A stretch of DNA of 27,069 nt, taken from positions 1 through 27,069 of the IMG/VR virus record IMGVR_UViG_3300043436_002816. One strand, written 5' to 3'. The translations under genes were made by a program, and so were the position numbers. Shown piece after piece: positions 14,978 to 24,443 of the stretch (positions within the stretch are counted from its first letter, which is position 1; each line of letters starts with the position of its first letter). Source of the DNA: a virus. The notes below the pieces were generated by a model that saw nothing but the letters and a program-made list of their open reading frames with translations, did not search any database and was not told the origin of the DNA.

Positions 14978-15298
14978 CTAGCGCCTAATCTTGACGCTTG
15001 TCTGCACAGTTCCGTCGCCGTCGCCGTTGCCGTTGCCGTAGCCGTAGCCGTAGCCGTAGCCGTTGCCGTAGCCGTAGCCGTCGCCGTTGCCGTAGCCGTC
15101 GCCGTTGCCGTAGCCGTAGCCGTAGCCGTTGCCGTAGCCGTAGCCGTAGCCGTAGCCGTCGCCGTTGCCGTAGCCGTAGCCGTTGCCGTAGCCGTAGCCG
15201 TAGCCGTTGCCGTAGCCGTCGCCGTTGCCGTAGCCGTAGCCGTCGCCGTTGCCGTAGCCGTAGCCGTAGCCGACCGGCATGAAGATGGTGGGGGCCAT
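14978..15298 (-). CDS. Tyr/Asn/Asp-Gly dipeptide-repeat protein
   Basis: A 106-residue protein of which 87 residues are an unbroken dipeptide repeat. The short N-terminus is MAPTIFMPV, then 43 consecutive XG units with X limited to Tyr (25), Asn (11) or Asp (7), and the basic C-terminus is TVQTSVKIRR. Asp units always follow an Asn or an Asp unit. The ATG overlaps the stop of the upstream gene (TGATG), with GGGGG about 8 bases before it, so it sits in the operon like its neighbours; this is why I read it on the minus strand although other frames are also open. Gly-Tyr-rich repeats suggest a disordered, sticky, possibly condensate-forming or silk-like protein. No function known to me. Confidence 0.65.
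   Translation of the reverse strand: MAPTIFMPVGYGYGYGNGDGYGYGNGDGYGNGYGYGYGNGYGYGNGDGYGYGYGYGNGYGYGYGNGDGYGNGDGYGYGNGYGYGYGYGNGNGDGDGTVQTSVKIRR
15011..15271. repeat. Hexanucleotide tandem repeat, about 43 copies of GCCGTN
   Basis: On the plus strand the unit is GCCGT followed by A, T or C, never G, for about 261 bases without interruption or length change. The only variable base is the first base of each alternate codon on the minus strand (TAC, AAC or GAC, each paired with GGC). Because the unit is two codons long, gain or loss of copies by slippage keeps the reading frame. Such arrays are prone to assembly error, so copy number here may be approximate. Confidence 0.95.
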
Positions 15299-16442: not shown

Positions 16443-16500
16443 TTTGCTGACACCTTTCTGCCACCGCTCCATGATGCTGTCAAACACATTTTTGCTATTG
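16443..16500 (-). promoter_or_regulatory. Leftward promoter, member 1 of a three-copy family
   Basis: Read on the minus strand: GCAAAAA (16495-16489), then TTGACA (16483-16478), a perfect -35, then GTGTCAGCAAA starting 30 bases after the first T, running into the ribosome-binding site of the 16431 gene. A second GCAAAAA lies 21 bases further upstream (16516-16510), two helical turns away, suggesting tandem protein binding. The -10 at 17-base spacing (CAGAAA) is poor, so activation by a phage or host factor is likely. Confidence 0.6.
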
Positions 16501-16550
16501 CCATGCGATTTTTTGCGGCTAAGGTGTGCGGACTAGCAAGGGAGATTGCA

Positions 16551-17147
16551 ATGACAGATTATTCAGTCAAAGTGACCGTTCGGAATGGCCGAATATTAAA
16601 AGCCATGCGTGACGCAGGCTATTCCAGCATGGCGGAGTTTTGCCGCAAGACTGGTTACAGTTACCAAGTTCTTTCAAGGCTGGTTTCGATGACGCAAACG
16701 GCGTATCGGGCTAATGGGGAGTGGCGCGATGCGGTATTGCATTTGTCATCCGTATTGAACTGCGACCCCGAAGACTTATTCACTGGCAGGCAGGCCGCAG
16801 GATTGGCAACAAACTCGGTCGAGGTAGATATGGGCGAGGAGCAAGTGGCCGCGCTGGTATCAAATGTTGCGACGCCCGAGGCCTTGGAGGCGGGCGCTAC
16901 TGTTGAACGGCTTTTGACGTTTCTTAACGACCGTGAGCGTAGTGTGGTGGCCGCGCGCATGGAGGGCGCAACCTATAGAGACGTTGGCTGTGACATGGGG
17001 TTTTCTGCTGAGCGCGTTCGTCAAATAGAGGCCAATGCGCATCGGAAAATGCGGGGGAAAATGATTAGAGCGGATCAGGCGGCGAGAGACGCTACCCCGC
17101 AATGGATTGTGGACGCTGGCAATCGCGGGAAAGGTATGGCGCGATGA
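16551..17147 (+). CDS. HTH plus sigma-70 region 4 regulator
   Basis: A 198-residue DNA-binding protein with two recognisable parts. Residues about 11-78 form a Cro/XRE-like helix-turn-helix (SMAEFCRKTGYSYQVLSRLV, ending in NCDPEDLF as in XRE domains). Residues 118-170 match sigma-70 region 4 (LLTFLNDRERSVVAARMEG, TYRDVGCDMGFSAERVRQIE, AHRKMRG). No region 2 is present, so it cannot be a full sigma factor; it could replace or contact region 4 at the -35 element. ATG 16551 is chosen for AAGGGAG six bases upstream. It is divergent from the leftward operon and first in the rightward operon, the classical place for an early switch regulator. Confidence 0.82.
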   Translation: MTDYSVKVTVRNGRILKAMRDAGYSSMAEFCRKTGYSYQVLSRLVSMTQTAYRANGEWRDAVLHLSSVLNCDPEDLFTGRQAAGLATNSVEVDMGEEQVAALVSNVATPEALEAGATVERLLTFLNDRERSVVAARMEGATYRDVGCDMGFSAERVRQIEANAHRKMRGKMIRADQAARDATPQWIVDAGNRGKGMAR

Positions 17148-17302
17148 ACCGATATGACGAAGCAATAAGCGCGGCGGATGATAAGCTGCGCAAAGATTGG
17201 GAGCGCGGCAGTGCCGAGTTACTGCAAGCTATCCGCTATGCAAGGGAAGGGATTGACCCGCAAATGCCGCTGTTTTCATGGGTGCCCAATGTCGATATTT
17301 GA
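17144..17302 (+). CDS. 52-residue hypothetical protein
   Basis: Starts in an ATGA overlap with the regulator gene. A short hydrophilic helical protein (MNRYDEAISAADDKLRKDWE, then LLQAIRYAREG) ending in FSWVPNVDI. Its last 14 bases overlap the GcrA-like gene. No family recognised. Confidence 0.6.
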   Translation: MNRYDEAISAADDKLRKDWERGSAELLQAIRYAREGIDPQMPLFSWVPNVDI

Positions 17303-17567
17303 CCGCAATCATAAGGGCTGGACGACTGGCGACGTAAAGAAACTGCGCGAGCTGTGGGAAAAGGGCTTTACGTCCTACGAGATTGCGAAGGTGATGGGCC
17401 GTTCGCGCAATTCGATTTGCTCGGCAGCGCGGCGGTATGAATTGCCGTATCGTGCCAACATCATCCCCGCAAAGCCCGATCTTATCACACAGCGCCAGCA
17501 CGACAAAGCGCGGCAAGAGTATATCGACAGCATCGCGCGGGCTAGCGTTCGGGTGACTGTGGCATGA
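17289..17567 (+). CDS. GcrA/SANT-like HTH DNA-binding protein
   Basis: A 92-residue protein with an N-terminal helix-turn-helix of the GcrA/Myb type: W11 opens GWTTGDVKKLRELWEKG, then SYEIAKVMGRSRNSICSAA, then RYELPYR. This matches the spacing of GcrA-family proteins (Trp, Leu-rich helix, 'IAxxxGxSRNxI', 'RxxLPxR'). GcrA binds sigma-70 and DNA in alphaproteobacteria. The tail (DLITQRQHDKARQEYIDSIA) is helical. The start overlaps the previous gene by 14 bases and the stop overlaps the next start (ATGA). A plain HTH protein without sigma contact is the alternative. Confidence 0.7.
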   Translation: MSIFDRNHKGWTTGDVKKLRELWEKGFTSYEIAKVMGRSRNSICSAARRYELPYRANIIPAKPDLITQRQHDKARQEYIDSIARASVRVTVA

Positions 17568-21693: not shown

Positions 21694-22857
21694 ATGGCAT
21701 ATTCAACGCTTAGCGCGTCATACGCTTTGGCGCAGCAAATCCGCGAAACGCTTTCCGCGATGGAGGGCGATGACCTTGTTTCCACCATTAACGAATTGCG
21801 CTTGGCAATCCACGAACACAGCCCGTTCAAGAGCGAGCCGGTCGATTGTGTCCTTTGGGTGCCTAATTCGACGGTGTATGCAAACGACTACAACCCGAAC
21901 AGCGTTGCACCGCCTGAAATGGAGTTGCTGCGCCTGTCCATTGATGCGGACGGTTACACGCAACCGATTGTGTCCATGCCTGACGATAACGGTGGCTATG
22001 AGGTTGTTGACGGCTTCCACCGTCACCGCGTTGGCAAGGAAATTCCTGAAATTCAGGCGCGCGTTAAGGGTTATCTCCCGCTGGTTTGCATCCGCTCTAG
22101 CCAATACGATAAGTCGAGCCGGATTGCGTCCACGATTAGGCATAACCGCGCCAGAGGTAAGCACAAGGTTAACGCAATGTCTGACATTGTGCTGGAATTG
22201 AAGCGGAGGAATTGGAGCGATGCGAAGATTTGCAAAGAACTTGGCATGGATCAAGACGAGGTTTTGCGCCTGTGCCAAATTAGCGGATTGACCGAGATTT
22301 TTGCTGATCAAGAGTTTTCGAGCGCGTGGGAGCCTCAGGGGTCGATTAGTCCTGATGACTTTGGGGACTTGTCTGGTTCGGCGGAAGATTACCTTAACGC
22401 AATGGGTGATGTTCGCGCCACTAATACGGACGACCCTGAGCGCATTTTCCATACCTTCGACAAATGGGAGTGCGCTCAGGCGGGGTTTTACGAAACCAAA
22501 CCGCCGCAAGGCATGACTGCCGATCATTGCCGCGCTTACTATCGGGAATTGCTTGCTGACATCCCTGAATTTGAGCGCGTTCTTGAGGGTGTGATTAGCG
22601 AATGGAAGCACTCTTGCGAGCATTACCTTACTAATCGTGCAATGAACCGCATTGCATGGCTTGGGCAGGCGGCACTTTGCTACAAGCACGGCATCCCGTC
22701 GGAGTTTCGCGGAGGCTATGGTCTTTTGACCGAGGAGCAACAGCTTGCCGCTGATGAAGCCGCTTTGCGCGCCCTAAACAAATGGATGGAGCGCAATGGG
22801 CGTGAGCCTGTAGCTATGGGCGATGCCAACCCGAACCGCCAATCTGACATCTATTGA
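21694..22857 (+). CDS. ibrB: ParB/Srx-like protein, IbrB type
   Basis: A 387-residue protein with a ParB/sulfiredoxin-type N-terminal domain: VYANDYNPNSVAPPEMELLR at about 61-80, IDADGYTQPIVS, and the box GYEVVDGFHRHRVG (His109 to Arg112). A ParB-like helix-turn-helix region follows (IRHNRARGKHKVNAMSD to EVLRLCQISGLTE, about 149-201), then a longer helical C-terminal part. Its neighbour is an IbrA-like protein; the IbrA/IbrB pair is known from E. coli as activators of prophage immunoglobulin-binding genes. In ParB relatives this domain binds CTP, but I cannot confirm that here. It has its own promoter element upstream. Confidence 0.78.
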   Translation: MAYSTLSASYALAQQIRETLSAMEGDDLVSTINELRLAIHEHSPFKSEPVDCVLWVPNSTVYANDYNPNSVAPPEMELLRLSIDADGYTQPIVSMPDDNGGYEVVDGFHRHRVGKEIPEIQARVKGYLPLVCIRSSQYDKSSRIASTIRHNRARGKHKVNAMSDIVLELKRRNWSDAKICKELGMDQDEVLRLCQISGLTEIFADQEFSSAWEPQGSISPDDFGDLSGSAEDYLNAMGDVRATNTDDPERIFHTFDKWECAQAGFYETKPPQGMTADHCRAYYRELLADIPEFERVLEGVISEWKHSCEHYLTNRAMNRIAWLGQAALCYKHGIPSEFRGGYGLLTEEQQLAADEAALRALNKWMERNGREPVAMGDANPNRQSDIY

Positions 22858-22864
22858 GGCTTAC

Positions 22865-24118
22865 ATGGGCAAGAGATACCTTGAGAAAAATGTTTTGCAG
22901 GCTTCGCGCGAGCGCATTGCCGCAACGTTTGATGTAGTCGAGAGGGTTTATATCGCTTTTTCTGGCGGAAAAGACAGCAGCGTTATGTTTCACCTTGTGA
23001 TGGAAGAGGCGCAGCGCCGGGGCGTTCGCGTGGGCGTGATGTATATCGACATGGAGGCCCAATACGCTGACACGATCAAGCACGTTAAAGAGATGTTGCA
23101 TCTTTATCAGGACAACATTGATCCGCACTGGATTTGCATCCCCATGCGCCTGCGAAACGCGCTCACAAACTATGAGCCGCAATGGATTGCATGGGAGCCG
23201 GGGCGAGAGGATGATTGGATCAGACCTAAGCCGCACGGCTGCAAGGGCGTGGAAGATTACCCGTTTCTTTTGGACGATATGTCAGACGGCATAGAGTTTG
23301 AGGAGTTTATCGTTATGTTTGGGCGCTGGTATGGACAGGGCAAGCCAACGGCGGGCTTTATCGGTATCCGCGCTCAAGAAAGCCTGCACCGTTATTGCGC
23401 CATTGCGACATGGGAAAAGCGCGACTTGATGCTGAACGGTTGGCGCTGGACGACCAAAATTGTCGATCAGGTTTACAACGTGTATCCAATTTATGATTGG
23501 TTGACGGAGGATATTTGGCGCTATCACGCGCACAGCCCTGACAAGCCGCACAACGCCATTTATGACAAGATGCAAATGGCGGGCGTTCCCCTGTCCGATC
23601 AAAGATTGTGCCAGCCCTTCGGGGATGACCAGAGGCGCGGACTTTGGCTGTATCATATCCTTGAGCCGGAAACTTGGTTTAAGCTGGTGGGGCGCGTCAA
23701 CGGCGTGAACAGCGGCGCGCTCTACATTAACGAAACTGGCAATATGACGGGATACAATAAGATCACGCTTCCGCCGGGGCATACGTGGCAAAGCTTCACG
23801 AATATGTTGCTGCGCACGTTGCCACCTAAAACCCGCGACCATTACGCCGAGCGGATGCGCAAGTTTATGGTGGGCTGGTTCAAACGGGGATATACTGAAA
23901 TTCCGCAAGAGGCACCGCCCGAACTTGAGGCAAAGCAGTGGGCCCCCTCTTGGCGGCGCATGGCTAAGTGCCTTTTGCGCAATGACTACTGGTGCAAGGG
24001 GCTTGGGCAAACTCAGCCTAAGAGCGCGGCATGGCTGCGTTTTAAGGAAATGAAAAAGCAAAAAGCCGTTGCGCCAATGGCGGAAGGCGAAGATTTGTTC
24101 GGAGGCGCAAATGCTTGA
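22865..24118 (+). CDS. ibrA: PAPS-reductase/N-type ATP-pyrophosphatase protein, IbrA type
   Basis: A 417-residue protein with the ATP-pyrophosphatase P-loop SGGKDSS (Ser33-Ser39) near its N-terminus, then VGVMYIDMEAQY and a Trp/Tyr-rich middle (GFIGIRAQESLHRY, DWLTEDIWRYH). The C-terminal half has phrases seen in IbrA/DUF3440 proteins: GVNSGALYINETG, LPPGHTWQSF and a tail with Cys residues (CLLRNDYWCKGLG). The family adenylates a substrate for sulfur or similar transfer; the true substrate is unknown. ATG 22865 (TGAGG five bases upstream) is preferred over 22823 and overlaps nothing of the ParB-like gene. Confidence 0.85.
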   Translation: MGKRYLEKNVLQASRERIAATFDVVERVYIAFSGGKDSSVMFHLVMEEAQRRGVRVGVMYIDMEAQYADTIKHVKEMLHLYQDNIDPHWICIPMRLRNALTNYEPQWIAWEPGREDDWIRPKPHGCKGVEDYPFLLDDMSDGIEFEEFIVMFGRWYGQGKPTAGFIGIRAQESLHRYCAIATWEKRDLMLNGWRWTTKIVDQVYNVYPIYDWLTEDIWRYHAHSPDKPHNAIYDKMQMAGVPLSDQRLCQPFGDDQRRGLWLYHILEPETWFKLVGRVNGVNSGALYINETGNMTGYNKITLPPGHTWQSFTNMLLRTLPPKTRDHYAERMRKFMVGWFKRGYTEIPQEAPPELEAKQWAPSWRRMAKCLLRNDYWCKGLGQTQPKSAAWLRFKEMKKQKAVAPMAEGEDLFGGANA

Positions 24119-24443
24119 CGATCTGCAATACGCCGATGAGGATTATGAGCGCGAGATGCGCAAGGCTTCTAACCTGCTTGCCCTTTGCATTGCGAGGGCA
24201 AGGCAGGGGTTGCCCACCAAATCGCCAGAGGGGCTTAAATGGAAGATTAAACCGGGCGGGGTTCAAAGACCGTGGGCCGATTGGGAGTATGAAACGCTGT
24301 TATCCGCTAGGGCGGATGGATTGACCTATCAGGACATTGCGGACGAGTTGGGCCGGACGCATGATGCGGTCAAGAAAATGGCGCGCAAGCTACAGTCGCC
24401 GGATGAGCGGCGCTGTGAGATATTAGCGAGTATGTCACGGTGA
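24111..24443 (+). CDS. SANT/GcrA-like HTH protein, second copy in the operon
   Basis: A 110-residue DNA-binding protein. The C-terminal half shows a Trp-started helix-turn-helix (WADWEYETLLSARADG, TYQDIADELGRTHDAVKKMA) like the GcrA-like protein at 17289, although the two are otherwise different. The N-terminus is helical (EDYEREMRKASNLLALCIAR). GGAGG lies five bases before ATG 24111. It overlaps the IbrA-like gene by 8 bases and the replication gene by GTGA. A regulator of early or replication genes is plausible. Confidence 0.65.
   Translation: MLDDLQYADEDYEREMRKASNLLALCIARARQGLPTKSPEGLKWKIKPGGVQRPWADWEYETLLSARADGLTYQDIADELGRTHDAVKKMARKLQSPDERRCEILASMSR

What the first reader, a model, noticed from the sequence alone, without database searches (positions are those of the whole stretch)
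16551..17147. XRE-type HTH fused to sigma-70 region 4, without region 2
One protein carries a repressor-like domain and the sigma domain that contacts -35 elements. It sits at the divergent early junction, next to promoters with strong -35 but weak -10 boxes. It could act as a repressor, an appropriator of the host sigma-70, or a switch between both.
Basis: partly seen in the sequence, partly recalled or inferred. Interest (0 to 1): 0.65.

Follow-up and report, generated by a model that had tools for sequence, protein, structure and literature searches.

The report
Phage XRE–sigma-region-4 fusion regulator family
A small phage protein joins a repressor-type DNA-binding domain to the sigma-factor domain that normally reads promoter −35 boxes; it is one member of a widespread, apparently undescribed family in uncultivated tailed phages, and it probably redirects the host RNA polymerase to phage promoters.

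Summary
ORF 16551–17147 (198 aa) carries an N-terminal Cro/C1-type HTH and a C-terminal sigma-70 region 4, each above its Pfam cut-off, and has no region 2. It is not a one-off. About 90 IMG/VR loci encode the same layout (35 sequences after 90% clustering). All have the same domain order and one copy in each of the ten contigs tested. None was found in two scans of 84,980 bacterial/archaeal genomes (limited sensitivity) or by tblastn in 50,697 named phages. AlphaFold models of two distant members agree: an XRE domain, a paired-strand linker and a sigma4 fold (0.9 Å over 56 aligned residues to Taq sigma4). The −35-contact residues of sigma4 are conserved, whereas the XRE recognition helix varies most. 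Eighteen fusion contigs lack tyrosine integrase and any sigma region 2. In four of six other lineages the gene lies close to the terminase genes.

Best explanation: a phage-specific promoter regulator of sigma-appropriation type. The XRE domain chooses the promoter, and the sigma4-like domain stands in for host sigma4 at the beta-flap/−35 element. This is inferred, not shown. New variant of a known kind.

The parts
16551..17147 (+). XRE–sigma70 region 4 fusion protein, 198 aa
   Evidence: ORF; Pfam HTH_26 and Sigma70_r4 above curated cut-offs; full-length homologues
16557..16586 (+). N-terminal conserved strand DYSVKVTVRN (residues 3–12)
   Evidence: beta strand 4–9 in the model; mean pairwise identity 0.71 across 34 members, but this motif was also the search pattern, so its conservation is partly ascertainment
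16590..16784 (+). Cro/C1 (XRE) HTH domain, residues 14–78
   Evidence: PF13443, 29.9 bits; SinR-like fold 3qq6; recognition helix 37–45 is the most variable helix of the two HTH domains
16812..16835 (+). Linker strand NSVEVDMG (residues 88–95), predicted to pair with the N-terminal strand
   Evidence: DSSP strand 89–94, the only other strand of 3 or more residues in the model; same element at 91–96 in a distant member; E91 invariant
16899..17054 (+). Sigma70 region 4.1–4.2 domain, residues 117–168
   Evidence: PF04545; Foldseek 1rio_H rmsd 0.9 over 56 aligned residues; −35-contact residues E585, R586, R588, Q589 and also R596 kept, R584 is Ala
16447..16475 (+). Promoter-like site CTGACA-N17-CATGAT (not above chance)
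16498..16525 (+). Promoter-like site TTGCCA-N16-TAAGGT ahead of the fusion gene (not above chance)
16455..16483 (-). Promoter-like site TTGACA-N17-CAGAAA for the divergent minus-strand genes (not above chance)
17289..17567 (+). Neighbour two genes downstream: 92-aa protein with the N-terminal half of the GcrA domain only
   Evidence: PF07750 28.3 bits (cut-off 26.9), profile positions 3–58 of 155; among the searched fusion-bearing loci only L124 has a comparable GcrA-like gene beside its fusion

Best explanation
The protein is a phage promoter-selectivity factor that works by sigma appropriation within a single polypeptide. The XRE domain binds a phage-specific operator beside or over the -35 region of particular phage promoters. 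The tethered sigma4-like domain then does the job of host sigma4 there: it docks on the beta-flap and/or touches the -35 element in place of sigma70 region 4, while host sigma70 region 2 still opens the -10. This switches polymerase towards phage middle or late operons and, at high dose, away from host promoters. Shown by computation: the two domains, their order, a conserved family, conserved sigma4 DNA-contact residues, a variable XRE recognition helix, and no phage-encoded region 2 in the contigs tested. Inferred: DNA binding, operator identity, polymerase contact, and activation rather than repression.
For: Both domains lie above their Pfam cut-offs and the fold is predicted with high confidence in two distant members. 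The sigma4 part superposes on Taq sigma4 from the lambda CI-NTD/sigma4/DNA complex (1rio, rmsd 0.9 over 56 aligned residues). A family profile hits primary sigma factors across 4.1–4.2 (SigA/RpoD, E about 1e-20). Residues of the -35-reading helix are kept in 34 members: E585 27/34, R586 32/34, R588 30/34, Q589 30/34; R596, an activator-contact position (own knowledge), is kept in 32/34. The sigma4 recognition helix is conserved (mean pairwise identity 0.56) and the XRE recognition helix is not (0.26), as expected for a shared polymerase/-35 interface with phage-specific operators. No sigma region 2 occurs in 18 fusion contigs, so any -10 recognition would come from the host. The gene lies close to TerS/TerL in G003, G012/G017 and G001 and near TerS in G006, the setting of late regulators. 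Two fusion phages carry repeated phage promoters whose -35 region holds a phage-specific motif: CTTGACACTGTAT upstream of five transcription units in G015, and AAAAACGCTTT plus a TATAA-like -10 at four sites in G016. Precedent: T4 middle promoters replace the -35 with a MotA box (PMC6755090), and T4 gp33 is described as a sigma4 mimic on the beta-flap (PMC2988020).
Against: No binding or transcription data exist. The relative orientation of the domains is not determined (pTM 0.55–0.57). R584, a main -35 contact, is Ala in the window protein, and L023 has lost Q589, so not every member may read a -35. No repeated operator was found in the window or in most sister contigs, and nothing ties the G015 and G016 motifs to the fusion protein. 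In the window, the L136–L185 clade and G015 the gene sits in early or replication operons or abuts the upstream gene, rather than always standing alone at the late border.
Confidence: 0.45

Rival explanations
1. Two-headed DNA-binding repressor. The XRE and sigma4 domains are simply two HTH modules that together occupy an operator and a neighbouring −35 box, blocking host polymerase at early phage (or host) promoters without contacting polymerase.
For: XRE domains are mostly repressors; −35-contact residues are conserved; in the window the gene is the first plus-strand gene at a divergent junction with −35-like boxes.
Against: No lysogeny context: no tyrosine integrase in 18 contigs, controls 14 of 14 positive, and no relatives in genomes. 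In many relatives the gene has no intergenic region of its own to autoregulate, the start abutting or overlapping the upstream gene. Region 4.1, the part that contacts the beta-flap in sigma, is retained as well as 4.2.
Confidence: 0.27
2. Late-gene activator in the manner of Firmicutes phage ArpU/RinA or PBSX Xpf regulators: a sigma4-like HTH binds late promoters, and the XRE part adds dimerisation or specificity.
For: Close to TerS/TerL in several lineages; sigma4-like regulators before terminase genes are an established phage pattern (own knowledge).
Against: The window protein matches no late-regulator family in Pfam, PHROGs or NCBIfam; the position is not universal; an XRE part is not known in those families (own knowledge).
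Confidence: 0.17
3. Sigma decoy. The sigma4 domain mimics host sigma4 to sequester a host anti-sigma factor or a rival phage's sigma4-binding protein, as PhyR mimics a sigma factor in the alphaproteobacterial stress response.
For: Sigma mimicry is established in Alphaproteobacteria (PhyR, own knowledge); sigma4 is a frequent target of phage proteins (PMC3985653; 4g6d).
Against: Does not explain the conserved DNA-contact residues or the fused, intact XRE domain.
Confidence: 0.07
4. Degenerate remnant of a full sigma factor whose region 2 was lost and whose region 3 was mistaken for an XRE domain.
For: Weak tblastn alignments of residues 19–182 to full sigma factors on two plasmids.
Against: Those plasmid proteins are complete sigma factors and their similarity is confined to the C-terminal end. 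The N-terminus scores as Cro/C1 and SinR-like. The same architecture is conserved at 26–42% identity over 34 sequences, which a remnant would not be.
Confidence: 0.02

Closest known systems
T4 sigma appropriation (AsiA + MotA)
   Same: A phage factor with a DNA-binding part and a part acting at sigma region 4/beta-flap redirects host polymerase to promoters with a phage box in place of the −35 (PMC6755090).
   Different: T4 uses two proteins, neither with a sigma4 fold; here a true sigma4 domain is fused to an XRE domain in one chain.
T4 gp33 (and the gp55/gp33 split sigma)
   Same: gp33 is described as a sigma4 mimic that binds the beta-flap tip (PMC2988020).
   Different: gp33 has no recognisable sequence similarity to sigma and works with gp55; no region-2 partner exists in the 18 fusion contigs tested, and here the DNA-binding residues of sigma4 are kept.
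Lambda CI activating PRM through sigma4 (1rio complex)
   Same: The same two folds act side by side on promoter DNA; the sigma4 part matches 1rio_H at 0.9 Å over 56 aligned residues.
   Different: In lambda they are separate proteins (CI and host sigma); here they are covalently joined and the sigma4 is phage-encoded.
Phage late regulators ArpU/RinA/Xpf
   Same: Small phage regulators, near terminase genes in several lineages (own knowledge for those families).
   Different: No XRE domain in those families as far as known; the window protein matches none of their models.
A0A0F7L6V6, 'Sigma-70 region 3 domain protein' (uncultured marine virus)
   Same: Full-length structural match, 200 aa, E 5e-11; very likely a family member.
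   Different: Named region 3 in the database; no function is recorded.

Membership tests
Sigma-70 family sigma factor (functional) | Region 2 for −10 recognition and core binding | tested here: not met
   No Sigma70_r2 in the protein, the window or 17 other fusion contigs; control genomes ring in 10 of 14
Sigma-70 family sigma factor (functional) | Region 4 fold with −35-contact residues | tested here: met
   PF04545 36.3 bits; 1rio_H 0.9 Å over 56 aligned residues; E585, R586, R588, Q589 kept, R584 lost in the window protein
XRE (Cro/C1) family DNA-binding protein | Cro/C1-type HTH fold | tested here: met
   PF13443 29.9 bits, cut-off 22; SinR 3qq6 match. Not every member passes one XRE Pfam model at the threshold used
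CI-type lysogeny repressor | Temperate context (integrase, presence in prophages) | tested here: not met
   No PF00589 in 18 contigs; no relatives in two genome-contig scans. Serine integrases were not tested and the scans used one short motif
CI-type lysogeny repressor | C-terminal self-cleavage/dimerisation domain | tested here: not met
   The C-terminus is sigma region 4
T4-type sigma appropriation (MotA/AsiA) | Displacement or remodelling of host sigma4 at the beta-flap | not testable with these tools
   Needs binding or structure with polymerase
T4-type sigma appropriation (MotA/AsiA) | Phage box in the −35 region of target promoters | tested here: inconclusive
   Such motifs are present in G015 and G016, absent from the window; binding protein unknown
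ArpU/RinA/Xpf late regulators | Match to those family models | tested here: not met
   No such model among the Pfam, PHROGs or NCBIfam matches
GcrA (neighbouring gene) | Full GcrA domain including the C-terminal sigma-interaction part | tested here: not met
   Only profile positions 3–58 of 155 match

The most novel reading that the evidence does not exclude
A previously undescribed, widespread family of phage regulators that achieve sigma appropriation in one polypeptide: an XRE domain chooses the promoter and a captured sigma region 4 replaces host sigma4 on the polymerase, a natural counterpart of the artificial CI–sigma4 fusions used in bacterial two-hybrid assays.
Probability: 0.35. Interest if true: 0.8.

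Novelty: new variant of a known kind. Interest (0 to 1): 0.6.

Why it matters
Phages that lack their own polymerase must redirect the host enzyme, and the known solutions (T4 AsiA/MotA, gp33/gp55, lambda Q, P7) come from few cultured phages. If this family works as proposed, one small protein combines promoter choice and sigma4 replacement, and its modular form (variable XRE, conserved sigma4) would make sigma appropriation easy to test and to use as an orthogonal switch. Even without the mechanism, the family gives an annotation to a protein now recorded, if at all, as a sigma-region-4 or region-3 protein, in phages whose hosts are uncultured.

Tried and rejected
Sigma remnant or mis-called region 3: rejected, since the plasmid hits are full sigma factors matching only at their C-terminal end and the layout is conserved. 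Split sigma with a phage region 2: none in 18 contigs. CI-type lysogeny repressor: no tyrosine integrase and no genome hits. GcrA partner bringing sigma region 2: attractive because GcrA is a sigma70 cofactor in Caulobacter (model cited in PMC7987155), but the neighbour has only the N-terminal half of GcrA, and a comparable gene is found next to the fusion only in L124. Promoters in the window: sites exist but are within chance. Repeated operator in the window: only a ribosome-binding-type motif repeats. Conserved operator upstream of the fusion in the L136–L185 clade: the start abuts or overlaps the upstream gene, so there is no intergenic operator. T7-type polymerase in the contigs: search uninformative because the control did not ring. 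ERF as an anchor to find relatives: gave 18 loci, none with the fusion.

Full report
What is there. The window is a linear 27,069-base IMG/VR record from a tailed phage with P22-like parts: a P22 gp7-type ejection protein, a head-binding tailspike, a Rad52/Erf annealing protein, a ParB-like protein and a DUF3440/PAPS-reductase protein. ORF 16551–17147 (+) encodes 198 aa. Residues 14–78 match Cro/C1-type HTH_26 (29.9 bits, cut-off 22) and residues 125–168 match Sigma70_r4 (36.3 bits, cut-off 24.1); nothing matches region 2. The alternative start at 16503 listed by the ORF finder is not supported, because homologues begin at the 16551 methionine or within a few residues of it.

A family. A search with the whole protein found no relative in viral contigs and none among 50,697 named phages. 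A search with the XRE half alone found eight loci, and a search for the phage's ParB-like protein found L031; all match over both domains. Iterating with alignments gave 29 and then 72 loci: 94 ORFs passed the family profile in the fetched loci, or 35 sequences after 90% clustering and removal of two ordinary sigma factors. Identity to the window protein is 26–42%. Every member in the alignment has the order XRE then sigma4, and all 34 aligned members match Sigma70_r4. Ten contigs tested carry exactly one copy. Other members also gave no full-length hit in named phages, only the sigma4 part of real sigma factors or nothing. Two scans of 84,980 bacterial and archaeal genomes gave none. Those genome scans used one short N-terminal motif, so members with RNN or RNA in that motif could be missed; absence from genomes is likely but not proven.

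Structure. AlphaFold2 on a 34-sequence alignment gives mean pLDDT 88.6 and pTM 0.55: strand 4–9, five XRE helices, strand 89–94, then the sigma4 helices. A distant member (L168) gives the same elements at pLDDT 85.3. The two strands are the only strands of three or more residues, so they must pair (inference from DSSP). They correspond to the conserved motifs DYxVKVTVRN and NSxEVxM, which suggests a fixed latch around the XRE domain. The low pTM means the orientation of sigma4 relative to XRE is not determined. Foldseek finds Taq sigma4 from the lambda CI-NTD/sigma4/DNA complex (1rio_H, 0.9 Å over 56 aligned residues), S. aureus sigma4 (4g6d) and SinR (3qq6); these domain-level matches carry high probability but E-values of 0.04–0.06, and no PDB match reaches 0.001. 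In the viral library a full-length match is A0A0F7L6V6 of an uncultured marine virus, E 5e-11.

Which parts are under constraint. Aligned to E. coli sigma70 region 4 (sequence and numbering from my own knowledge), the −35-reading residues are kept: E585 in 27 of 34, R586 in 32, R588 in 30, Q589 in 30, R584 in 20 (24 with Lys). R596, known as an activator-contact position, is kept in 32. The window protein keeps all but R584. The sigma4 recognition helix has mean pairwise identity 0.56; the XRE recognition helix has 0.26, the lowest of the segments compared by pairwise identity. The N-terminal strand has 0.71, but it was the search pattern, so that figure is inflated. A conserved −35/polymerase face with a variable operator-reading helix is what a promoter-choosing factor would show.

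Context. The 17 other contigs examined and the window lack tyrosine integrase (control positive in 14 of 14) and lack any sigma region 2 (control positive in 10 of 14). A T7-type polymerase search was uninformative, since its control did not ring. Gene order varies. In G003 and G001 the gene is followed, after at most one gene, by TerS and then (with further genes between in G001) TerL. In G012/G017 it is followed by a small XRE protein, a ParB–methyltransferase protein, TerS and TerL. In G006 it is two genes from a divergent TerS. In G015 it lies beside DNA polymerase A, in G016 at the end of an operon, and in the window at the head of the plus-strand early genes. Closeness to the terminase genes in four of six other lineages is suggestive of late regulation but not universal.

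Promoters. No repeated operator was found in the window. In two other fusion phages there are repeated motifs. In G015, CTTGACACTGTAT lies upstream of five transcription units, all five genomic matches being upstream of genes, along with a palindrome TTGCTTAC-N4-GTAAGCAA at several of them. In G016, AAAAACGCTTT lies in the −35 region of four early promoters with a TATAA-like −10; it recurs in the related contig L167. These are leads; nothing shows that the fusion protein binds them.

Mechanism. I favour sigma appropriation by one protein: the XRE domain selects phage promoters and the sigma4-like domain substitutes for host sigma4 at the beta-flap/−35, with host sigma2 opening the −10. Published precedent covers each half: T4 MotA/AsiA (PMC6755090), T4 gp33 as a sigma4 mimic (PMC2988020), and displacement of sigma4 by phage P7, where fusions of CI to sigma4 or the beta-flap are standard assay tools (PMC3985653). 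The main rival is a two-headed repressor that only occupies DNA. No step of polymerase contact or DNA binding has been shown.

Novelty and verdict. Searches of the open literature found no description of this architecture; subscription papers were not searchable. It is a new variant of a known kind (phage factors acting at the sigma4/beta-flap site) and, as a family, apparently unannotated.

Noticed in passing
window 15012–15272: Array of 43.5 copies of the hexamer CCGTAG (90% match) between the late genes and the minus-strand genes; it opens long spurious frames on both strands.
   Followed up: no
window 21694–24118: ParB-like protein followed by a PAPS-reductase/DUF3440 protein, resembling the IbrB/IbrA pair (own knowledge); in G003 the same two families are adjacent.
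   Followed up: no
G015 (L196/L197), e.g. contig 32168, 30712, 28590, 24152, 15525 (−): Repeated promoter motif CTTGACACTGTAT upstream of five transcription units and a palindrome TTGCTTAC-N4-GTAAGCAA at several of them.
   Followed up: partly
G016 (L198/L199) contig 15337 +, 15305 −, 12746 −, 9651 −; L167 3019 +: Motif AAAAACGCTTT in the −35 region of early promoters with a TATAA-like −10 about 18–20 bases downstream, two of them back to back.
   Followed up: partly
L124 4456–5052 (+): Gene next to the fusion with two tandem GcrA-like N-terminal domains.
   Followed up: no
window 24084–24443: Second small HTH protein with a weak Sigma70_r4_2 match (20.4 bits, below the 25.7 cut-off), similar in type to the GcrA-like gene.
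   Followed up: no
L127 2772–3362: Family member whose sigma4 recognition helix is missing in frame while flanking sequence is intact; real deletion or assembly fault not resolved.
   Followed up: no
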